Assembly: GCA_015062445.1 (NCBI GenBank) | Contig: SUUQ01000009.1 | Location: forward strand, 1-32,888 | Direction: 5' to 3' | From: Alphaproteobacteria bacterium | GTDB lineage: Bacteria; Pseudomonadota; Alphaproteobacteria; Rs-D84 | Length of the DNA stretch: 32,888 nt | Shown here: in pieces, positions 1-32,888 of the stretch | Numbering within the stretch: position 1 is the stretch's first letter | How the letters are laid out: each line of letters starts with the position of its first letter | Notes under the pieces: generated by a model | Databases searched by the model: none | Seen by the model: the letters and a program-made list of their open reading frames with translations, nothing else | What the model was told of the DNA's origin: nothing | Program-made: the position numbers and the translations under genes

Positions 1-2366
1 CAACTTGCATTCGCAGGACAAGATGATGTTGCGTTCCCCGAACACTTATTGCTACATGACTTTGTACACTGCGATTCAGATGTACTGCCCGCTGGACTGC
101 TGTATCCGCTGTCACATGCATTACATACACCATTTTCTAACCAATAATTTACCTTGCAACTGTCTATTTTCAGTGAACATGTTGATGATGCTGCACTGCA
201 TGAACCACCGTAATAGTATGTTCCACTTGTACTGGTTGTACCATGTGTCACAGATTGTGCACCTGTTGGTACAGGTTGTTGTGTACATGCCTGTGTACAA
301 TTCTTATAGCATACACCACTGCCACCTGTGTTGCCAGATTGTGATAACGTAAATGATTTATCACCAACTGTACTGCAAGACGGGCAGGTGATACCATCAA
401 CATAGTTGCCTGAACTGGCGGTGACTGACTTTACTGTTTTTTTGCACGATTCGTTATTGGTTGAGCAACCTGATTTTATTGTTCCATCCCCCGTACCAGC
501 ACTGTTTGAATATGCAACATAATTACATTTATCACGCGAACAAGATTCACATGTTGCAGATTCGCATCCCGATGGCGTATCGCACTCTATCTGCTTGCCC
601 GACCATGTGCGTTGTTTCGTATTGCTATAGCAATCTGTTATTGCTGTTGCACCTGCGTCAACATTCGGATAACCGCTGGGGCAACTGTGCACAGTATTAT
701 CACCTGGACACCAACCGTTTGAGCATTGCACGCACGCACCACTTTTCAAATAGTATCCAGGATTACATGTTATATTCTTTGTACAGTTACCACACGAACG
801 TGATGTTGATTTATATGTGCTGTAATCACCGTTTTTACAGCCACTGCATGTATCGCCACCAGACGAACAAGCATTTCCACTGCCGCCTGTAAAGTTTGTG
901 GAACACTGATAAACATTATCTTCGGTACACCCCGAATATGTACACGTACCGTTCGCAATTGTGCAACCTGTCAACGAACAAGATTCTGTTTTTGTTGTTG
1001 TTTCAGTACTGGCCACTTCTGTACACGCAGTGCGACATTCTTCAGATAATTTTGTACATGTTTTTGTTGGTGGTGTACATTCTGTATGCTGACATGCCCC
1101 CCAGTCACCCCAGCTGTCATAACTGGTAATCGAACAATCATATGGATCGCCAACATCGTACCAGCCACCCCATTCGTCGCATCCCGAACAATCATCGTCA
1201 GCCGATGCACATCCGCCGGATGTAAAACTGCCGATACAGTCATTTTTCTGATTTTGTTTGCAGGTCTGATATGCGGGGCGGCTGCGGGACTTTGTTCCTG
1301 TTGCGGTACAGCTGCTTTGTTCATCTGCCCATGTACAGTCATATCCACTTTTACAGGTTCCCACTACACAATCTTTATAATATGTTTCTTCACACCCCGT
1401 GGTTTCGGTGTCAGTTGTATCTGGTCCATCCACAGGAATGGTTTGCTCATCTGTTTCATCACTGTCCACATCTGAACACGACTGAACACACGTTTCAGAT
1501 AATTTTGTACAGGTTTTTGTTGCAGGCGTACAGGGAGTTGCATCACAGTCGCTCCAATCGCTCCAATCGCTCCAACTGCTAATTACACATTCTTCATAGT
1601 CGCCACACGACCAACTGCCCCAACTGGAACATCCCGAACACTCATCGCCTGCTGATGAACAGCCCCCACTGGTATATATACCAGAACATGTACGGTTGCA
1701 ATCTCGAGACTTTGAACCTGTGCCGATACGACTGCGATATCTGTTGCCATATGTGGTGCAACTGCTTTGTTCATCTGCCCATTCACATTCATATCCATAC
1801 GCACATGTTCCTTCTACGCAATCCTTATAATATGTTTCTTCGCAGTCATCTTCGTCTTCCTCGGTTTCCGAACACGGGATCGAGTCAATTTTACTGTCTG
1901 TTTCATCACTGGACAAAGAAGCACACGATTGATCACAGGTACAACCTGCATCACTGCTTGTACACTCGTTATAACACCCAGAATACCCATCGGCACAGGC
2001 CGCACACGTATCGCACTCTTCTTCTTCGGTTATGCATTCCCCAGACACACATACCATACCGTCATCACAATCACTGTCAGAATTACATTCATACAAATTA
2101 CCACCATCAGGTGTACATGTATCTGTTCCCAAACATTCATTTACACAACCGCTGTATCCAGGTGGACATGGCGCACACGTGTTGCAGTCGATTTCAACGG
2201 TCGTACAGACACCACTGTCGCAAAATTCGTCTTCGCCACAATCAGTATCTTCCATGCATTCATATGCAATGTCTTGGTCTGCACCGAACGCCATTTTTTG
2301 CGGCACAACCCCAAACAGCAGTGCCAAGGCGACAAAAAATCTCAGGAATCTGCGAAGATTATCCAT
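1..2366 (-). CDS. Secreted cysteine-rich modular protein with TSR-like tryptophan motif (3' end outside window)
   Basis: An open frame with no stop runs from ATG 2366 to the left edge: 788 residues are visible and the C-terminus is missing. The start is supported by an AGAGGAAG ribosome site just upstream. Residues 1 to about 29 form a signal peptide (basic MDNLRR, a hydrophobic FFVALALLFGVV core, cleavage near AFGA). The rest is dense in Cys with little hydrophobic core, made of short Cys modules such as CxxDxDCGxxxxCxxGxC. A module of about 150 residues occurs twice: it opens with EETYYKDCV, continues with WADEQSSCT and ends with TKTCTKLSE. Between the copies lies WSDWSDWSDC, which matches the WxxWxxWxxC signature of thrombospondin type-1 repeats. 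By family analogy this is an exported adhesin-like or surface protein stabilised by disulfides; that role is inference. It lies downstream of rplS but behind a terminator, so it is probably transcribed separately. Confidence 0.85.
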   Translation of the reverse strand, partial: MDNLRRFLRFFVALALLFGVVPQKMAFGADQDIAYECMEDTDCGEDEFCDSGVCTTVEIDCNTCAPCPPGYSGCVNECLGTDTCTPDGGNLYECNSDSDCDDGMVCVSGECITEEEECDTCAACADGYSGCYNECTSSDAGCTCDQSCASLSSDETDSKIDSIPCSETEEDEDDCEETYYKDCVEGTCAYGYECEWADEQSSCTTYGNRYRSRIGTGSKSRDCNRTCSGIYTSGGCSSAGDECSGCSSWGSWSCGDYEECVISSWSDWSDWSDCDATPCTPATKTCTKLSETCVQSCSDVDSDETDEQTIPVDGPDTTDTETTGCEETYYKDCVVGTCKSGYDCTWADEQSSCTATGTKSRSRPAYQTCKQNQKNDCIGSFTSGGCASADDDCSGCDEWGGWYDVGDPYDCSITSYDSWGDWGACQHTECTPPTKTCTKLSEECRTACTEVASTETTTKTESCSLTGCTIANGTCTYSGCTEDNVYQCSTNFTGGSGNACSSGGDTCSGCKNGDYSTYKSTSRSCGNCTKNITCNPGYYLKSGACVQCSNGWCPGDNTVHSCPSGYPNVDAGATAITDCYSNTKQRTWSGKQIECDTPSGCESATCESCSRDKCNYVAYSNSAGTGDGTIKSGCSTNNESCKKTVKSVTASSGNYVDGITCPSCSTVGDKSFTLSQSGNTGGSGVCYKNCTQACTQQPVPTGAQSVTHGTTSTSGTYYYGGSCSAASSTCSLKIDSCKVNYWLENGVCNACDSGYSSPAGSTSESQCTKSCSNKCSGNATSSCPANAS
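1030..1885 (-). repeat. Diverged internal duplication of about 450 bp within the cysteine-rich gene
   Basis: Two stretches match at an offset of about 450 bp. A 22-bp segment at 1311-1332 recurs at 1761-1782 with one mismatch at its edge. The ACATATTATAAAG-like segment after each copy and the TTTTGTACA(T/G)GTTTTTGTTG stretches near 1045 and 1505 also match. The protein copies share EETYYKDCV, WADEQSSC and KTCTKLSE. Module boundaries are approximate. Confidence 0.75.
1549..1575. repeat. Three perfect tandem copies of a 9-bp unit inside the cysteine-rich gene
   Basis: TCGCTCCAA occurs three times back to back and encodes Trp-Ser-Asp three times on the minus strand. The unit is a multiple of three, so changes in copy number would keep the frame and only lengthen or shorten the tryptophan ladder. 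Confidence 0.9.
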
Positions 2367-2426
2367 TACTTCCTCTCTTTTACCAGACAGGATAGAAAAT
2401 TTACACACTGTTATGCAAGAAAAAAA

Positions 2427-2500
2427 GTTCCCATCTCGGCTGGGGGCGCAGGGCGGGGTGGTCCCATCCATGTCATACCGGCGCAGGCCGGTATCCATTG
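2427..2500. repeat. Intergenic palindromic repeat, copy 1 (mate at 31228-31298)
   Basis: The core palindrome TACCGGC-GCAG-GCCGGTA sits in a 29-bp segment (2472-2500) that recurs exactly at 31270-31298. A second shared block, TTCCCATCTC(G/A)GCTGGGG, lies about 40 bp before it in both copies. It resembles the dispersed palindromes that are read as VIPAQAGIH-like peptides when translated. It is non-coding here, in the 370-bp gap between rplS and the left-edge gene. Confidence 0.8.
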
Positions 2501-2523
2501 TGTTTTTTTCCACCCCCCCCCTA

Positions 2524-2736: not shown

Positions 2737-3126
2737 TTATTTTGCATTCTTTTCTGCAGATGTTGCGGACAAATCTTCCACGATACGTGCTTTTTTGCCT
2801 GACAACCCACGCAAGAAGAATAACTTTGCACGACGTACTTTACCGATACGAACCTTTTCAATCTTCTCGATTGATGGGCTGTACAGTGGGAACTTGCGTT
2901 CTACACCGACACCGTATGATTCACGACGTACTGTAAAGGATGCATTATTTCCCATGCCGCCATCACGTGCGATAACAACACCTTCAAAGACCTGAATACG
3001 GAACTTGTCACCGTCTTTAATTTTGACGTGAACCTTCAGTGTATCCCCAGCTTTGAAGTTTGGGATTTTTTTGTCGCCCGCCAGTTTTGCAACCTGGGCC
3101 GCTTCGATTTTTTTAATAATGCTCAT
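2737..3126 (-). CDS. rplS: 50S ribosomal protein L19
   Basis: This 129-residue protein binds 23S rRNA at the 30S-50S interface. Family signatures are [32 protein letters not shown] residues around 22-49 and the conserved [18 protein letters not shown] segment near 68-85, followed by [12 protein letters not shown]. Length is normal for the family apart from a slightly long tail ([11 protein letters not shown]). Its ATG overlaps the trmD stop as ATGA (ATG 3126-3124, TGA 3125-3123), so the two are translationally coupled. It is the last gene of the operon and is followed at once by a terminator. Confidence 0.97.
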
Positions 3127-3809
3127 TTTTCATTTTCCTTTATTAAGTCCGGCCGACGTTCTTTTGTTATGTCAACCGATTGTTGTTTCCGCCACCGTTC
3201 GATATTGCCGTGGTGACCGGACAGCAGGACTTCTGGGACACTTTGTCCACGCCATACTGACGGGCGGGTATATAACGGCCATTCCAGCCCCCCGATTTCG
3301 AAACTTTCATTATTGGTGGTGTCTGCACCACCGTGAACGACATTATCCATCAGACGAACGCAACTGTCAACAAAAACTTGCGCAGCGATTTCGCCCCCCG
3401 ACAGTATATAGTCGCCAATTGATAATTCCATGATATTATATTCTGTTATTACCCGTTCGTCAATTCCTTCGTATCGGCCACACAACAGGGTGTACGTTGC
3501 ATCTGGTGCTGCGGTAAATTCCCGCACCATTTTTTGATTTAACGTTGCGCCACGTGGCGAAAAGTATATGATTTTACCCGGATTTTTAATCGAATCTAAT
3601 GCCGCCCCCAGTACATCTGGCCGCATTACCATACCGGCCCCGCCACCGAATTGCGTATCGTCAACACTGCCATAGTTGTTAATGGCAAAGTCACGAATGT
3701 TAATCACATCATACGTCCAGATTTTTTTATCCAACGCACGTCCAACAACACCACCCGACAGTGTCCCTGGAAACATTTCTGGAAAGATTGTCAGTATATT
3801 AAAGTGCAT
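3123..3809 (-). CDS. trmD: tRNA (guanine-N1)-methyltransferase TrmD
   Basis: TrmD methylates G37 next to the anticodon, using S-adenosylmethionine, and prevents +1 frameshifting. The 228-residue protein begins [15 protein letters not shown], as the family does. It carries GGGAGMVM (55-62), SPRG (84-87), [11 protein letters not shown] (109-119) and [10 protein letters not shown] (131-140), the SPOUT trefoil-knot SAM site, plus RPSVWRG and LSGHHGNI towards the C-terminus. No key residue is visibly missing. It lies between a small Cys-containing ORF (9-bp gap to 3818) and rplS, with which it overlaps by 4 bp. Confidence 0.97.
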
Positions 3810-3817
3810 TTTTATTA

Positions 3818-4096
3818 TTACCTGGTTTTAATTTTTGTAACAAAACGTCTGTTTTTGCATTGTTGGCATGCCTGACGGGTGATATCCAGTGCTGTTGGCA
3901 TTGCTGCCTGAATTTCCGCAGGTGTTCCCCGTAATATTATGCTGCACCGGAACAAGTTATTCTGTTTTTGGTCGCACAGCACACGTGTGTTGGGCAATGG
4001 TGCGAACAACCGTGTCAGTGGACATGTTGCACGTGTTTTGATACATGTTGCAAAGACAGTCTTGTCCGAATGTTGTATTGAATAATCTTGTTTCAT
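3818..4096 (-). CDS. Small cysteine-containing protein inserted between rimM and trmD (92 aa)
   Basis: I do not recognise this protein. The chosen ATG (4096) has an AAAGGAC ribosome site about 8 bases upstream and follows the stop of the preceding ORF by one base. A longer frame starting at 4150 would overlap that ORF and lacks a better ribosome site. There is no signal peptide or membrane segment. Residues include IQHSDKTVFATC near the N-terminus, spaced Cys in CIKTRATCPLTRLF, a central LRGTP, and a CQQCKNRRF C-terminus rich in Arg/Lys. The layout resembles the neighbouring 4098-4367 product (HxDKxxxxC, xC, then a basic CxxC tail), so the two may be old paralogues. A metal- or RNA-binding role is possible but unproven. 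Confidence 0.72.
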   Translation of the reverse strand: MKQDYSIQHSDKTVFATCIKTRATCPLTRLFAPLPNTRVLCDQKQNNLFRCSIILRGTPAEIQAAMPTALDITRQACQQCKNRRFVTKIKTR

Positions 4097-4097
4097 A

Positions 4098-4367
4098 TTA
4101 GCGTGTCCTTTGTCTGGTGCGTTGGCAACACAGAAAGCATATTTGTTCAACGTGTTGCCCCAGTGTTGGTGAAAAATTTGGTTGAAATCTGGGGGCCATC
4201 AATATGCCTGTACCACGTGGCAGGTCATATGCCTTGATTAAATAAGTATTAGTCCGCCAAAACAGCCCCAGCATACATTGTTTTGAATACCCCGGACACT
4301 CAACCGTGATTTTATCATCGTGTTTTGTGATGCGATATGGCAGTCTGTGATTTGTATTTTTTATCAT
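4098..4367 (-). CDS. Small cysteine-containing protein downstream of rimM (89 aa)
   Basis: I do not recognise this protein. The ATG at 4367 has AAGGTAA seven bases upstream. The longer frame to 4484 would lie inside rimM. The gene starts 5 bases after the rimM stop and ends one base before the next ORF, which is typical operon packing. The product is basic and soluble, without a signal peptide. It shows ITKHDDKITVECPGYSKQC near the N-terminus, a central YDLPRGTGI and a C-terminal ICFLCCQRTRQRTR. The Cys spacing and basic tail resemble the next ORF (3818-4096). Confidence 0.72.
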   Translation of the reverse strand: MIKNTNHRLPYRITKHDDKITVECPGYSKQCMLGLFWRTNTYLIKAYDLPRGTGILMAPRFQPNFSPTLGQHVEQICFLCCQRTRQRTR

Positions 4368-4372
4368 AAGAT

Positions 4373-4843
4373 TTACCTTGTTACAATTATACGATTTTCT
4401 GCATCGACTGTTGCACCGACAAAAGACACCATCTGTCCATTGTCCAGTTCGATTATGTCGCCCGCACCAAAGTTCTGAAAGCATGCAACCGTTCCGATTG
4501 TTGAACCATCCCGCACAACGTTAAAGCCGATTAAGTCCGCCTGATAGTATTCGTCATCTGCACTTAATTGGGGCAGGGTATCACGCACCACGAACAGTTC
4601 TGTCCCCCGCAATGCTTCTGCGGCATTTCGGTCATCGATTTTATCGATTTTTGCGATAATAACATTTGAACTGGGAATGGTTCTGATGAAACGAAATGCA
4701 CCATCGGCAAATTTATCAGACACAATCTGCAGTGTTTTCATATCTTGTGGAGATTGTGTAAAAGTTTGCACACGAACTTCACCCCGTATACCCTGGGGGG
4801 CAACAATTTTACCGACCAAGATTTTTTTGCTATTATCTGCCAT
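4373..4843 (-). CDS. rimM: Ribosome maturation factor RimM
   Basis: RimM binds S19 and assists maturation of the 30S head. The 156-residue protein opens with the family signature VGKIVAPQGIRGEVRV (about 10-25). It contains KIDDRNAAEALRGTELFV, then LPQLSADDEYYQADLIGFNV, which marks the PRC-barrel domain. AAAAGGA lies upstream of ATG 4843. Its first 11 bases overlap the end of the preceding small ORF, implying coupled translation. The usual rpsP-rimM-trmD-rplS gene order is kept, but small ORFs separate each of the first three genes. Confidence 0.96.
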   Translation of the reverse strand: MADNSKKILVGKIVAPQGIRGEVRVQTFTQSPQDMKTLQIVSDKFADGAFRFIRTIPSSNVIIAKIDKIDDRNAAEALRGTELFVVRDTLPQLSADDEYYQADLIGFNVVRDGSTIGTVACFQNFGAGDIIELDNGQMVSFVGATVDAENRIIVTR

Positions 4844-5138
4844 TGTTTTTATTCCTTTTTAACCAGTGACGATAACGCACACATTTATCAAACCCCATGT
4901 TACATGCATCATGTGCACCATCTCTGGTATAAATAACCTCATTTATGTGATTTCGTGCACAGTATTCTATTGCCTGGCGGAATTTGATTAATTCCTGCAT
5001 TTTCTTGCAGCACAGATTCAAATCATACGGGCAGGAAATTTCTGCGATACAGGCATTTTTAATGTCTGCCACAGAATTTATTAATTCCTGTTTTTTCTGT
5101 GCTGAAAAAAGTTCATCCGGGTTAAACAGTTGTGGCAT
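4833..5138 (-). CDS. Small Cys-rich protein upstream of rimM (101 aa)
   Basis: I do not recognise this protein. It is predicted cytosolic and mostly helical, with Cys in ISCPYDLNLCC and a second group in ACNMGFDKCVRYRHW near the C-terminus. It shares a pattern with its upstream neighbour (5143-5340): CPx(5-6)C, then a Phe/Tyr-Arg-Gln segment, then a Cys pair ending DxCxR. Four paired Cys suggest a structural metal site, by inference only. It starts 4 bases after the previous stop and overlaps rimM by 11 bp. The ribosome site is weak, so coupling to the upstream ORF is likely. Confidence 0.72.
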   Translation of the reverse strand: MPQLFNPDELFSAQKKQELINSVADIKNACIAEISCPYDLNLCCKKMQELIKFRQAIEYCARNHINEVIYTRDGAHDACNMGFDKCVRYRHWLKRNKNNGR

Positions 5139-5142
5139 ATGA

Positions 5143-5340
5143 TTACCGTTGTTTCTGCTGTGTGCTGTTTAATAAACGCAGACAGTTATCGTGATTTACT
5201 GGGCATACACCTGGTGCGCATACATACTTGAAAGATTTTGCACAATTTTGAAATGCAATTTTTGTCTGGCGGTAAAATTCATCCAGACGATAAATAGAAT
5301 TACATTCGATTTTATCATTATGTGGGCATACATCTGCCAT
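5143..5340 (-). CDS. Small Cys-rich protein downstream of rpsP (65 aa)
   Basis: I do not recognise this protein. ATG 5340 is preceded by a strong AAAAAGGAAAT ribosome site. The sequence has VCPHNDKIECNS at the N-terminus and YVCAPGVCPVNHDNCLRLL near the C-terminus, so two Cys-containing halves flank a helical LDEFYRQTKIAF stretch. It looks related to the next ORF (4833-5138). No signal peptide is visible, so the Cys probably face a reducing cytosol and could bind a metal. It is the first gene after the hairpin that follows rpsP. Confidence 0.72.
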   Translation of the reverse strand: MADVCPHNDKIECNSIYRLDEFYRQTKIAFQNCAKSFKYVCAPGVCPVNHDNCLRLLNSTQQKQR

Positions 5341-5384: not shown

Positions 5385-5412
5385 AATACTGCCCGGGGGG
5401 ATGCCCGGGCCA
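5385..5412 (-). terminator. Strong GC hairpin after rpsP, terminator or attenuator
   Basis: On the minus strand GCCCGGG-CATCCC-CCCGGGC forms a perfect 7-bp stem followed by AGTATTTTCG, which is only partly U-rich. It lies 23 bases after the rpsP stop, within the operon. It may reduce read-through from rpsP into the downstream genes or protect the rpsP 3' end. Confidence 0.6.
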
Positions 5413-5435: not shown

Positions 5436-5873
5436 TTATTCTGCAACTTCTGTGGCCTGGGCATCATCAGCTGGTGCTTCTGCTGCGGCTTTTGCTGCTG
5501 CTTCTGCGGCTGCCTTTTCTGCGGCTATTTTGGCCAACTTTTCTGCTTTATCTTTGATTTTCATCTGTGTTTTTTCTGACTGCAGATGTTTTTTTGTTTG
5601 AACAGGGATTGCCTTTGGTTTAACCAAATCTGCCTTGGCCAAGAATTTGTACACACGATCAGATGGCTGCGCACCCTTTGCCAACCATGCTTTTACTGCA
5701 TCGATTTTCAAGACGACACGTTTATCGCTGTCTTTTGGTTGCATTGGGTCGTATTTACCGACAGTATCCAACACATTACCAGAATTACGTGCATTACGTG
5801 AATCTGTAACCACGATGTGATAGTATGGACGTTTTTTTGCGCCGAAACGTGCCAAACGAATAACAGTTGCCAT
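5436..5873 (-). CDS. rpsP: 30S ribosomal protein S16
   Basis: This 145-residue S16 binds 16S rRNA in early 30S assembly. The first 80 residues are canonical: [22 protein letters not shown], the [21 protein letters not shown] segment, and [17 protein letters not shown]. The remaining 60 residues form a Lys/Glu then Ala-rich low-complexity tail, as in many alphaproteobacterial S16 proteins. The start at 5873 is chosen over a longer frame because AAGGAGT lies 8 bases upstream. It leads the operon towards rplS. Confidence 0.97.
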
Positions 5874-6123: not shown

Positions 6124-6153
6124 TTGCAAAATGAATACATAATGATGTATAAT
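6124..6153 (+). promoter_or_regulatory. Sigma-70-type promoter for RNA A
   Basis: TTGCAA (6124-6129) and TATAAT (6148-6153) are separated by 18 bp, with a predicted start near 6160. The -10 box is followed by ATAC, exactly as at the RNA B promoter. Between rpsP and this promoter (5874-6123) I see no gene. Confidence 0.7.
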
Positions 6154-6159
6154 ATACCA

Positions 6160-6344
6160 AAGATTCCAAAAGGAATCTTGTGATATAAAGAGTGCAAGGG
6201 TTTAGACACCCTATACACGATATGCTCTGTTTATATCCCGACTGAATGGTCGGGATGTCGTTGTCATAAGGTTTTGCCAAAAGCAACGAAGTTTCGTGTA
6301 AACTGTCTAACTCCCGACCACCTTTAAAAAAGTGGTCTTTTTTT
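6160..6344 (+). ncRNA. Structured RNA A, unassigned family (paired with RNA B)
   Basis: This is a predicted transcript of about 185 nt. Visible pairings are: a 5' hairpin AGATTCC/GGAATCT (6161-6178); a long-range helix TTAGACA (6202-6208) with TGTCTAA (6304-6310), continued by TACACGA (6214-6220) with TCGTGTA (6294-6300); an inner hairpin ATCCCGAC/GTCGGGAT (6235-6256); and an alternative long-range pairing of GTCGGGA (6249-6255) with TCCCGAC (6312-6318). It ends in a terminator. RNA B has the same plan with different bases in the helices, which is what a conserved structure would produce. It has no tag frame or CCA end like tmRNA, and I could not match it to 6S RNA or RNase P. It may be a free small RNA or a leader controlling the nuclease gene. 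Confidence 0.68.
6316..6344 (+). terminator. Terminator of RNA A, abutting the nuclease start codon
   Basis: GACCAC/GTGGTC (6316-6321 with 6332-6337) is followed by seven Ts, and the next base is the A of the downstream ATG. The stem shares its first three bases with the TCCCGAC strand, so stem and long-range pairing compete. Confidence 0.85.
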
Positions 6345-6878
6345 ATGGGTAAAACGGTCAATTTTTTTCTTTTTAATATATTTGTGTTGGCTTCCCTAGA
6401 TGCTTGTGTCGCCATAAAAGTGCCCCAAACTGAAACGACCAATGTTAAAAATAATGATATTGAAATCTTTTTTACCCCTGGGCCAGATTGCGAAAATAAC
6501 ATCATTCAAAGAATAAATGAATCCGATAAAATAGATATTGTCGTTTATTCGATTACTAATCCAAAAATTACAAATGCTATAATCGGTGCATATAAAAACG
6601 GGGCAATCATTCGAATTATTACTGATAAAACACAATCAACGGGCAAAAAGTCATTGGTTGCAGACCTTAAAAAAGCGGGTGTTCCAGTTTTAACCAACAG
6701 AAAGCATAAAATTGAACACAATAAATTTGCGGTGTTTGATGATGATACGGTGGTATCAGGGTCATATAATTGGACAACAAATGCCAGTATACACAACAGT
6801 GAAAATTGCCTGTTTTTCAAGCAGCCGAACCAAGAATATTCAAATCGGTTTAAGTATCTGTGGAACATATATAAATAA
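6345..6878 (+). CDS. Secreted phospholipase-D-family nuclease (Nuc-like)
   Basis: This 177-residue single-HKD enzyme of the Nuc / PLD superfamily would act as a dimer to hydrolyse phosphodiester bonds, typically in DNA. The catalytic motif is HxKxxxxD (His125, Lys127, Asp132), followed by GSYNWT (139-144), with IEIFFTPG (39-46) at the domain start. Residues 1 to about 23 form a signal peptide with a long hydrophobic core. An LDAC segment at 18-21 could be a lipobox. Export suggests nutrient DNA scavenging or defence outside the cytosol. The ATG directly follows the T-run of the RNA A terminator and has no clear ribosome site, so expression may need read-through, or the 5' end may be processed. 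It is more A/T-rich than its neighbours. Confidence 0.85.
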   Translation: MGKTVNFFLFNIFVLASLDACVAIKVPQTETTNVKNNDIEIFFTPGPDCENNIIQRINESDKIDIVVYSITNPKITNAIIGAYKNGAIIRIITDKTQSTGKKSLVADLKKAGVPVLTNRKHKIEHNKFAVFDDDTVVSGSYNWTTNASIHNSENCLFFKQPNQEYSNRFKYLWNIYK

Positions 6879-8564: not shown

Positions 8565-8593
8565 ATCCCCACTGCAGTGGTGGGGATTTTTTT
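8565..8593 (+). terminator. Terminator after the glutamate dehydrogenase gene
   Basis: ATCCCCAC (8565-8572) pairs with GTGGGGAT (8580-8587), followed by a T-run. The T-run touches the stop codon of the convergent radical SAM gene at 8592. Confidence 0.9.
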
Positions 8594-9428
8594 ATCTAAT
8601 ATTTTGCATTAAATTATTAACCACCTGTGTCAGTGGTTGACCATTAATTTTTGAACGAAAAACATTGTTCAGCACGGCCATATCGTTATTGTCTACCATC
8701 AGACAGTGTCCTGTATCATCTGGTCGCCCATCCAGTTTATACACCCCCAGATTATTTTCTTGGGCCCGTCCCGCACTGGCAATTTTTGAATTTGTATCAC
8801 AAAAAACCGGGAACATAAGTTTACCTGGAACCTCTATCAGCAATGTGTTGTCATTGGTTTCTGCCACCAACAGTCCCCGATTGCATAACTGCATCAGCAA
8901 TTCTGCAAACACCATCATTTGCTTTGGCGTGTTCAGTCCCACCATCGACAGTCGTATTGCTGGCGATAAATAATCACTGGCGCTGACATCACGAATAACA
9001 TTTGCAACACCATTTAAGTTATTGTGAAATTCATCGACAGACATTTCTATGGTCATCAGTTTTTTGTGTTTATATGCAGTTTTTGCGAAATCCCCCAGTA
9101 TCAGTTGCCGCATTTTATCATCATTTCCCCACATTGCATTTGTCTTGACGACTGGCACCATATTATTGTGTACTGCGATATCCAGACATGTTGGTATGTA
9201 CTGTGTTTGGTTGTGATAGTATGGTGCCAATGTTTCACCACCTGTAAACACCATATATTCAGATTTTGTACAGGGCATTGCATTAAACTCGACGATATAT
9301 TTTTCAACTTTGCCCAGTGGCATGATGTTTGGCGCCATATTTGGTCCACTGCATTCGCAACAGTGTGCACATTTCAGATTGCACCAATTTGTATTTTTGA
9401 TTGAAAAGCTGACTTTTTCACAACTCAT
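8592..9428 (-). CDS. Radical SAM domain protein
   Basis: This 278-residue protein carries the [4Fe-4S] motif CxxxCxxC (Cys16, Cys20, Cys23) followed by CECSGP, and a FTGGE motif (61-65) that binds S-adenosylmethionine. The second half has scattered Cys but no clear SPASM cluster, so only the core cluster is supported. The substrate is unknown: peptide, RNA or cofactor modification are all possible. It is the last gene of the LysM-HNH-radical SAM operon. Its ATG (9428-9426) starts one base after the HNH stop codon (9432-9430), so the two are tightly coupled. It has no signal peptide and is presumably cytosolic. Confidence 0.88.
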   Translation of the reverse strand: MSCEKVSFSIKNTNWCNLKCAHCCECSGPNMAPNIMPLGKVEKYIVEFNAMPCTKSEYMVFTGGETLAPYYHNQTQYIPTCLDIAVHNNMVPVVKTNAMWGNDDKMRQLILGDFAKTAYKHKKLMTIEMSVDEFHNNLNGVANVIRDVSASDYLSPAIRLSMVGLNTPKQMMVFAELLMQLCNRGLLVAETNDNTLLIEVPGKLMFPVFCDTNSKIASAGRAQENNLGVYKLDGRPDDTGHCLMVDNNDMAVLNNVFRSKINGQPLTQVVNNLMQNIR

Positions 9429-9429
9429 A

Positions 9430-9960
9430 TCAACGTTTTTTACTTTTTCGTTGTTCGAACTTATTATTTTTCAGACACTTTGCCTTGCGAAATTTTTCTT
9501 TCATTTTTGAATCTACCACAATGACTTGTGGAACAATAATAATCGCATACTGAACATCAAACAAATTTTCAAAAATCTGTGCACCTTTTTGTTCATTGCA
9601 CATCTTGTGTATTGGGTACAGATTGTCCATATTATCTTGCCCACCCCCACATCGCGGATGTAAATGATCCCATGAAAAATCACGCATATTCAGAATTGGC
9701 TGATTACAGGCATAGCATTTTGGGTTTAAATCATAGTCAATTGCAATTTTATACAGTTTTTTGATATGCCGTTTCCCCAATGCATTGACATTTTTATTCA
9801 GCATTTCCAGAATCTGATGTGGATTCCACATGATGTCACGGCGAACACCTGCGGCAATCTCTGCCGCCATATTATACAGTTGTTTTACGTGTGTTCGGTC
9901 TAATTTATTTGCACACAAATCTATGGATGCCAACAGGTCCTGAATATCTTCTGGTTTCAT
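9430..9960 (-). CDS. HNH endonuclease domain protein
   Basis: This 176-residue protein has a C-terminal HNH fold. CYAC (Cys82, Cys85) is followed by SWDHLHPRCGGGQDNMDNLYPIHKMC-type residues, with Asp98-His99, Asn113, His118 and Cys121 in the ββα-metal pattern, and ends in NEQKG. The N-terminal half contains two similar helical units, LDRTHVKQLYNMA (20-32) and LGKRHIKKLYKIA (61-73). The C-terminus is strongly basic (KCLKNNKFEQRKSKKR), suiting nucleic-acid binding. It lies between the LysM gene (2-base gap) and the radical SAM gene (1-base gap). A DNA or RNA nicking role is inferred from the fold; the target is unknown. Confidence 0.85.
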   Translation of the reverse strand: MKPEDIQDLLASIDLCANKLDRTHVKQLYNMAAEIAAGVRRDIMWNPHQILEMLNKNVNALGKRHIKKLYKIAIDYDLNPKCYACNQPILNMRDFSWDHLHPRCGGGQDNMDNLYPIHKMCNEQKGAQIFENLFDVQYAIIIVPQVIVVDSKMKEKFRKAKCLKNNKFEQRKSKKR

Positions 9961-31410: not shown

Positions 31411-32888
31411 CTACCATTTCATATAACCTGGTGCGCATTCACGAACACATTTCTTGGTATCTTCATCCCAGTGTTGTGAACCTGTGCCATCATCTGCAAC
31501 ACTGATTTCGGGGCATATAAACAAACATTCGTTATTCACCAGTGCATATTTTTCTCCTTGATACATACAGGCCGCAATTTCGCACCCGTCAACATACCCG
31601 CTGACCGCCAATTCGCCGTTCTCGGCATACATATTATTGCACCGACCACATTGTTCCCAGTATTCATTGGTCAAACTGCTGTCCATGGTATAACCTGGTT
31701 CGCACTTGGTTGCAATACAATCATCCCATTCGTTTCTATTATGATTCCATGTGCGTACGCCGACACCATGTGGCAATTTGCAGTTTTGCTGGTCTTCTTG
31801 ACACGTATTATTGATCAAGTGATACCTATCACCACATTTTTTAATAACACATTCTGCAAATGCATTTTTTTTGCTATCCCAAATTCTGTTTGCAACAACT
31901 GCATTTGGCGCAGTACATTCAATCACATCACCTTCGCAATACTGACCATTTGGATGATATCCCAGTGCGCACGATTCAACAACGCAATTTGCATTGGGTT
32001 TATATGATATCGCAAATGGGCGATTACATGGCTGACACTTGCCATTAATCATTTCAAAGTTGTAATTACATGATGTTTCTACACATCTACCATTAACAAC
32101 TTCACCTGGATTTCCTGTTTCAGAAACACACCCATATTGACATGCGTTCGGATAAAACGCATTATCTGAAACTGGTACGGCCATACCACCTGTCACAGCA
32201 TACGGTTCACATTTTTTAAAGCAACTTTTTACACCACTCATACCTGGCAATGACAGTACATATTTTCCATCAGTCAGGGCTGCACACGACTGTGGATTTG
32301 GATTGTCCGGTGTACAGATGCTGCCAGCAGGACACTCGACACAGCGACCATTGCTCAATGTATACCCTGCGACACAAACCTTGATTTCACAGGTGTCTGT
32401 TGCACGCCAGTAATCATGTCCAGTCATTGCATATGCTTTTTCGGCCAATTCACACTCCCGCCAGCAATATGCCGCATCTGTCGTTCCTTCATCTGCCTTG
32501 GTATATGCACCATCGGTCAGTTCTGCGCACGTAAATTGTTTACCACCTGTACACACATGATCCTCAGGACATCCGATACAACTATTTCCAACCTGTACGA
32601 AATCCACCTTGCACCCTGTCACAATACACTGGGTACAATCTGCGACATACGCAGACTTTGCTGCAGAATAATTACATGTATTTTCACCTGTACCATTTTT
32701 AATATAACACGACAATTTTTCTTTATAGCAATCTGCAATATCCGAACTGACATTTGTTTTGGTTTTACCATCATCTGGACAGATTGCGCGTGCGGTTAAC
32801 AGGTTGTTATTATTAACATCTGCAACCGGACCATAATGGTCATAACCAACGACAGAACATACTCCATCGGTTGCCTTGGCCCAGTAAT
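31411..32888 (-). CDS. Cysteine-rich modular protein, C-terminal part (5' end outside window)
   Basis: The frame is open to the right edge with no stop, so the N-terminus and any signal peptide are outside. Internal TTG or ATG codons are not needed as starts. About 490 residues are visible. Repeated Cys modules include a TDGxY unit seen twice (CAELTDGAYTKADEGTT and CAALTDGKYVLSLPGMSG, each followed by CxxxC). There are also units of the type CxxGYxxxxGxCxxC, such as CVAGYTLSNGRCVECPAG and CNYNFEMINGKCQPC. This resembles growth-factor/TNFR-like disulfide modules, a structural analogy only. Probably surface-exposed or secreted. It is not obviously a copy of the left-edge gene. Confidence 0.82.
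   Translation of the reverse strand, partial: YWAKATDGVCSVVGYDHYGPVADVNNNNLLTARAICPDDGKTKTNVSSDIADCYKEKLSCYIKNGTGENTCNYSAAKSAYVADCTQCIVTGCKVDFVQVGNSCIGCPEDHVCTGGKQFTCAELTDGAYTKADEGTTDAAYCWRECELAEKAYAMTGHDYWRATDTCEIKVCVAGYTLSNGRCVECPAGSICTPDNPNPQSCAALTDGKYVLSLPGMSGVKSCFKKCEPYAVTGGMAVPVSDNAFYPNACQYGCVSETGNPGEVVNGRCVETSCNYNFEMINGKCQPCNRPFAISYKPNANCVVESCALGYHPNGQYCEGDVIECTAPNAVVANRIWDSKKNAFAECVIKKCGDRYHLINNTCQEDQQNCKLPHGVGVRTWNHNRNEWDDCIATKCEPGYTMDSSLTNEYWEQCGRCNNMYAENGELAVSGYVDGCEIAACMYQGEKYALVNNECLFICPEISVADDGTGSQHWDEDTKKCVRECAPGYMKW

What the first reader, a model, noticed from the sequence alone, without database searches (positions are those of the whole stretch)
3818..5340. Four small Cys-containing ORFs inside the rpsP-rimM-trmD-rplS operon
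This operon is usually compact and conserved in order. Here two small ORFs lie between rpsP and rimM and two between rimM and trmD. All are packed with 1-9 base gaps or overlaps, and three of the four have good ribosome sites. They form two pairs of possible paralogues with spaced Cys. Their position suggests a link to ribosome assembly or tRNA modification, perhaps with metal or redox sensing.
Basis: partly seen in the sequence, partly recalled or inferred. Interest (0 to 1): 0.66.

Follow-up and report, generated by a model that had tools for sequence, protein, structure and literature searches.

The report
Small cysteine proteins in ribosomal operon
A genus of tiny-genome gut bacteria has slipped two families of small, fast-changing four-cysteine proteins, seen in no other genus searched and of unknown job, into one of the most conserved ribosome-building operons, each family staying on its own side of the gene rimM.

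Summary
rpsP-rimM-trmD-rplS (minus strand, 5873-2737) carries four extra ORFs: sA (65 aa) and sB (101 aa) between rpsP and rimM, sC (89 aa) and sD (92 aa) between rimM and trmD. They are real genes. Profiles built without the window recover all four as two paralogue pairs. Omega is 0.12 and 0.32, and Cys are kept in 71 of 75 ortholog comparisons. Their relatives occur only in this genus, most likely Candidatus Enterousia (1 of 23 genera of the order); other genera have the normal compact operon. The families are position-locked: family A hits lie upstream of rimM in 88 of 103 cases and never downstream; family B downstream in 107 of 123 and never upstream. Copies are gained or lost repeatedly and recombine between species. 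No convincing Pfam, PHROG, NCBIfam or PDB relative was found. Best reading: genus-specific accessory proteins with a four-Cys (probably zinc) core and a basic C-terminal tail, expressed with ribosomal genes and perhaps acting on translation. Function is unproven; a type IV secretion substrate role is a live rival. Metal or redox sensing is untested.

The parts
5436..5873 (-). rpsP, ribosomal protein S16 (upstream flank)
   Evidence: Pfam PF00886 1.5e-22
5391..5410 (-). G+C-rich hairpin in the 95-nt rpsP-sA gap (GCCCGGG-CATCCC-CCCGGGC), without a clean T tract; possible attenuator or mRNA stabiliser
   Evidence: terminator-like scan; fold of the gap not better than shuffles (z -1.1); a G+C hairpin follows rpsP in 47 of 86 relatives
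5143..5340 (-). sA, 65 aa, family A: CPHNDKIEC...CAPGVCPVNHDNC, tail QKQR
   Evidence: leave-out profile E 1e-13
4833..5138 (-). sB, 101 aa, family A: CPYDLNLC...CNMGFDKCVRY, tail NNGR; overlaps the rimM start by 11 nt
   Evidence: leave-out profile E 3e-15; AlphaFold2 pLDDT 85.8, helical
4373..4843 (-). rimM, 16S rRNA processing factor
   Evidence: Pfam PF01782 1.9e-17
4098..4367 (-). sC, 89 aa, family B: CPGYSKQC...CFLC, tail RQRTR
   Evidence: leave-out profile E 5e-8
3818..4096 (-). sD, 92 aa, family B: CIKTRATCP...CQQC, tail KIKTR
   Evidence: leave-out profile E 2e-13; AlphaFold2 pLDDT 82.7, beta2-alpha-beta2-alpha
3123..3809 (-). trmD, tRNA m1G37 methyltransferase (downstream flank)
   Evidence: Pfam PF01746 3.9e-42
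2737..3126 (-). rplS, ribosomal protein L19; junction with trmD carries no insert

Best explanation
These are two orphan families of accessory small cytoplasmic proteins that arose in one genus and have been kept at one address, family A between rpsP and rimM and family B between rimM and trmD. SHOWN: protein-coding, under purifying selection, genus-restricted, position-locked, amplified and lost locally, exchanged between species by recombination within the cassette. INFERRED: the four conserved Cys form one structural metal site, most likely Zn(II), holding a small fold together; packing and overlaps make the ORFs translationally coupled to the ribosomal operon, so they are made constitutively and in quantity. 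INFERRED AND WEAKEST: they act as lineage-specific accessory factors on the translation apparatus (ribosome, RimM, TrmD or tRNA). Pointers are the place, other copies or look-alikes beside rpsD, rpsB-tsf, metG-queH, ileS and lepA, and the basic pI and C-terminal tail.
For: Coding and paralogy; all 141 family members counted at the site start with ATG. Selection: omega 0.12 (A) and 0.32 (B) against trmD 0.07 and rimM 0.17-0.18; Cys kept 29/32 and 42/43. Four Cys columns invariant in 61 family B proteins; two invariant and one at 90% or more in 48 family A proteins. Confident compact AlphaFold2 models. Genus restriction and lock. Recombination mosaic L008/L009/L013. Translation-linked neighbours elsewhere: own genome metG-queH, ileS-nth, lepA; other genomes rpsD, rpsB-tsf. 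Basic: median pI 8.5-8.8 against 6.4, C-terminal K/R 89-92% against 31%.
Against: No direct evidence of any function, of zinc, or of expression. Presence or absence changes at least 18 (A) and 13 (B) times on the trmD tree and 7 of 85 loci lack both, unlike a core translation factor. Divergence (often 26-40% identity while trmD is about 90%) is fast for a ribosome-binding protein. Some other copies sit beside non-translation genes such as ACP and DHFR. The list of translation-linked neighbours in the own genome is post hoc and small (four loci). Position alone can reflect descent, not function.
Confidence: 0.38

Rival explanations
1. Operon stowaways: real small Cys4 proteins with no special role in translation (for example regulation, stress, or phage defence) that use the strong, always-expressed ribosomal operon as an expression platform and its conserved flanks as recombination arms.
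For: Repeated gain/loss and copy-number variation, recombination at the site, fast divergence, other families of similar small Cys proteins scattered elsewhere in the genome.
Against: Strict side-specificity over a whole genus and translation-type neighbours at several other sites. Only one weak PADLOC match among family B members and scattered weak PHROG matches; family A was not scanned against PADLOC.
Confidence: 0.3
2. [quoted passage not shown]
For: Members of family A, family B and the other gap ORFs end in K/R in 89%, 92% and 76% (R in 56-68%) against 31% (R 8%) of proteins of 200 aa or more, also where the next gene starts 25 nt or more away (9 of 10). The genus encodes VirB4 and VirD4 (all 8 good genomes sampled) and the own genome VirB3. 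Positively charged C-terminal signals are one of two originally described T4SS signal types (PMC10025392). The lineage is predicted to be partner-dependent (PMC12306168).
Against: A ribosomal operon is an odd place for effectors; no export shown; the tail is short and could instead aid termination or protect from proteolysis; pooled omega is well below 1.
Confidence: 0.18
3. The ORFs matter only as spacers, leader peptides or translational couplers for rimM and trmD, not for their products.
For: Tight packing, overlaps and SD sites at ORF ends.
Against: Cys conserved at protein level, omega 0.12-0.32, confident folds, and other species run the same junctions with no ORF at all.
Confidence: 0.04
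4. Chance ORFs or assembly error.
For: None beyond small size.
Against: Independent MAGs from many animals and studies carry homologues at the site.
Confidence: 0.01

Closest known systems
Taxonomically restricted (orphan) small-protein genes within housekeeping operons
   Same: Small, fast-evolving, genus-limited, no database relatives, co-directional and tightly packed
   Different: Two families locked for a whole genus to fixed, different sides of one gene in a near-universal operon, with conserved Cys and repeated local amplification and recombination
Small Cys4 zinc-binding proteins and domains (zinc ribbons, treble clefs)
   Same: Four Cys in two pairs, one pair CxxC in family B, small compact predicted folds
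   Different: No convincing match at sequence or structure level; Cys pattern C-x6-8-C ... C-x2-C (B) and CP-x4-6-C ... C-x5-8-C (A); metal not shown
VirB/VirD4 type IV secretion substrates with basic C-terminal signals
   Same: Basic hydrophilic C-terminus shared by unrelated proteins; genus has VirB4 and VirD4
   Different: No export evidence; genes sit in a ribosomal operon; tail is only about 4-8 residues

Membership tests
Known protein family (Pfam, PHROGs, NCBIfam) | Profile match at curated cut-off | tested here: not met
   sA-sD: no match at cut-off. Family members against Pfam and PHROGs: only scattered weak matches; the best, DUF5651 5e-7 in 2 of 61 B members, was not traced to those members, and a genus search with that family found nothing over its cut-off
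Known solved fold | Significant structural match | tested here: inconclusive
   sD: best Foldseek E 0.03, best Z 8.3 at rmsd 6.5 over 75 residues, otherwise Rpb11/Pcc1/S6-like Z about 6-7. sB: none with E under 5, Z 2.0
Small Cys4 zinc protein | Four conserved Cys in two pairs | tested here: met
   (family B all four invariant; family A two invariant, one at 90% or more, one shifting in spacing)
Small Cys4 zinc protein | Binds one zinc per chain | not testable with these tools
   needs metal analysis of purified protein
Translation accessory factor | Binds ribosome, tRNA, RimM or TrmD | not testable with these tools
   only gene position is available
Core translation factor | Retained together with the machinery it serves | tested here: not met
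   presence changes many times on the trmD tree; 7 of 85 loci lack both families
Type IV secretion substrate | Host encodes the system with VirD4 | tested here: met
   VirB4 and VirD4 in all 8 good genomes sampled, VirB3 in the own genome; the other components were not sought
Type IV secretion substrate | Basic hydrophilic C-terminal signal | tested here: inconclusive
   tail enriched in K/R, but short and with other possible causes
Type IV secretion substrate | Exported in a VirD4-dependent way | not testable with these tools
   needs an assay
Mobile or phage-borne gene | Relatives in viruses or at many unrelated sites | tested here: inconclusive
   IMG/VR scans with three single proteins found no relative, but reach close relatives only; 195 of 226 family hits lie at the one site

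The most novel reading that the evidence does not exclude
The genus carries a large repertoire of unrelated small Cys4 proteins that share one C-terminal basic address tag, are expressed from translation operons at ribosomal-protein levels, and are handled as a class (exported by the type IV system to a partner cell, or recruited to ribosomes); the rpsP-rimM-trmD cassette is its recombination-driven diversification site.
Probability: 0.17. Interest if true: 0.86.

Novelty: new variant of a known kind. Interest (0 to 1): 0.62.

Why it matters
Ribosomal-protein operons are treated as fixed. Here one genus keeps a hypervariable slot inside one, filled with position-locked small Cys4 proteins that no library used here recognises. 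If they act on ribosomes or tRNA, they are lineage-specific translation factors; if they are exported, they are a new class of secreted protein made at high level by an uncultured, partner-dependent gut bacterium. Either can be tested with short synthetic genes in laboratory strains.

Tried and rejected
Chance ORFs and assembly error: rejected by relatives and omega. Pure spacer or leader role: disfavoured by Cys and protein-level conservation. Family A and B as one family: profile comparison gives probability 0.9%. Known domain: Pfam, PHROGs, NCBIfam, PDB sequence and PDB fold searches gave nothing convincing; DUF5651 followed up in 59 genomes and dropped. PADLOC was run on family B only. IMG/VR profile scans with A1 and A2 could not be run because no stretch is conserved enough. 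C-terminal K/R as a by-product of the next gene's Shine-Dalgarno site: not supported, since it also holds when the next gene starts 25 nt or more away, though n is 10. Structured leader in the rpsP-sA gap: not better than shuffles. Literature: no paper found on small proteins at this site.

Full report
WHAT IS THERE. On the minus strand the window has rpsP 5436-5873, sA 5143-5340, sB 4833-5138, rimM 4373-4843, sC 4098-4367, sD 3818-4096, trmD 3123-3809, rplS 2737-3126. Spacing from sA on is 4 nt, an 11-nt overlap, 5, 1 and 8 nt; the rpsP-sA gap is 95 nt and holds a G+C hairpin.

WHOSE GENOME. The window is contig C2 of a 1.05-Mb assembly. The nearest trmD genes are in alphaproteobacterial MAGs from sheep, deer, goat and buffalo guts, with named relatives Candidatus Enterousia onthequi and scatequi. 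The genus is therefore most likely Ca. Enterousia, order Rs-D84, with reduced genomes and a predicted partner-dependent lifestyle (PMC12306168).

REAL GENES. In 86 distinct loci (85 relatives and the window) the rpsP-rimM and rimM-trmD gaps vary from about 0 to 1789 bp and nearly always hold one to six small ORFs, mostly with 4-8 Cys. Of 87 clustered first-gap ORFs of 50 aa or more, 85 fall in one cluster; second-gap ORFs fall in other clusters and singletons. The first-gap cluster also contains a Cys-poor helical family, linked through fusions. The Cys members give family A (48 non-redundant rows, two invariant Cys, CPYD-x3-C...CP-x5-C-x-R) and, from the second gap, family B (61 rows, four invariant Cys, C-x6-8-CP...CxxC). 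Profiles built without window sequences recover sA and sB only in A and sC and sD only in B, far above 1000 shuffled decoys. All 141 A and B members counted start with ATG. Pooled NG86 omega in close ortholog pairs is 0.12 for A (7 pairs) and 0.32 for B (9 pairs), against 0.07 for trmD and 0.17-0.18 for rimM; Cys are kept in 29/32 and 42/43 cases. Single B pairs with omega near or above 1 have very low dS, which may reflect recombination or small numbers.

POSITION LOCK AND GENUS LIMIT. In the own genome the A and B profiles hit only this operon. In 201 genomes of the order, A hits 78 and B 88 genomes, all in the one genus, 1 of 23 genera. Order relatives of other genera mostly have the compact operon. 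Of 103 A hits, 88 lie within 2.2 kb upstream of rimM on its strand and none downstream; of 123 B hits, 107 lie downstream and none upstream. A and B are unrelated by profile comparison.

TURNOVER. On a quick trmD tree, presence of a Cys ORF changes at least 18 times for A and 13 for B, and 7 of 85 loci lack both. In L008, L009 and L013 the second B gene of L013 is 94-100% identical to that of L008 while the first is 95-99% identical over most of its length to that of L009, against a background of about 0.85-0.95: single ORFs recombine inside the cassette. So the slot is amplified, lost and swapped while the flanks stay fixed.

STRUCTURE. AlphaFold2 with the family alignments gives mean pLDDT 82.7 for sD (beta2-alpha-beta2-alpha, Cys 18/25 before or at helix 1 and Cys 77/80 in the last helix) and 85.8 for sB (helical). 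No convincing PDB match. Most of these proteins show no signal peptide by eye; L073 g2b looks like a lipoprotein carrying a similar domain.

C-TERMINAL TAIL. A, B and the other gap ORFs end in K or R in 89%, 92% and 76%, against 31% of proteins of 200 aa or more; R alone 56%, 68% and 62% against 8%. It is not tied to a close downstream start, though only 10 cases test this. Several other small Cys ORFs of the own genome end the same way. Export address, RNA contact, termination efficiency and protection from proteolysis are all possible causes.

RELATED ORFS ELSEWHERE. Other genomes have A or B copies beside rpsD, rpsB-tsf, an ACP cluster, ruvA/yebC, xseA, and downstream of rplS on the opposite strand (gene names from sequence by eye). 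The own genome has other tightly packed orphan Cys ORFs after metG, ileS and lepA. This suggests a tie to translation operons but was noticed after the fact.

INTERPRETATION. Existence, families, genus limit, position lock and turnover are shown. A structural zinc site and high constitutive expression are likely but inferred. Action on translation is the leading guess (0.38), against stowaway proteins with another job (0.30) and type IV secretion substrates (0.18; VirB3, VirB4 and VirD4 are present; basic C-terminal signals are described in PMC10025392).

NOVELTY. No family library or paper searched describes them. Orphan small proteins are a known kind; a genus-wide, side-specific, recombining cassette of them inside a ribosomal operon is, as far as searched, a new variant.

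Noticed in passing
window 6160-6347 (+): Strongly folded stretch upstream of rpsP on the other strand (MFE -61.4, z -5.7, 0 of 200 shuffles as good), preceded by a promoter-like TTGCAA-18-TATAAT at 6124 and ending in a hairpin plus T tract. No Rfam match and no blastn match in relatives' loci: a candidate small RNA.
   Followed up: partly
window 3-2513 (-) and 31411-32886 (-): Two very Cys-rich, probably secreted proteins with EGF-like CxxCxxGY repeats at the window ends.
   Followed up: no
own genome C4:80656-80913, C8:80043-80294, C9:126588-126995; L218: A further family of small Cys proteins (MSFTQ...CxGCxKHC...CDNYKTR) with the same basic C-terminal tail, seen at dispersed sites.
   Followed up: partly
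own genome C9:73971-74273, C9:83561-83767, C12:27663-28016: Orphan Cys ORFs tightly packed after metG (before a QueH-like gene), ileS (before nth) and lepA.
   Followed up: partly
own genome C9:58379-60631 and C9:103567-106292: VirD4, and VirB3-VirB4 type IV secretion genes; VirB4 and VirD4 occur across the genus.
   Followed up: partly
L023, L024, L025, L027, L030, L059 and others, first gap: A Cys-poor helical family (DSYxxNLxxLMxYAxxNNIDExEYIxxIR) directly after rpsP in some relatives, absent from the window.
   Followed up: no
L212, L213, L214, L216: Weak family A copies on the opposite strand about 1-2 kb downstream of trmD-rplS.
   Followed up: no
window 8592-9960 (-): A radical-SAM-like ORF (WCNLKCAHCCEC) next to an HNH-like ORF, by eye.
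   Followed up: no
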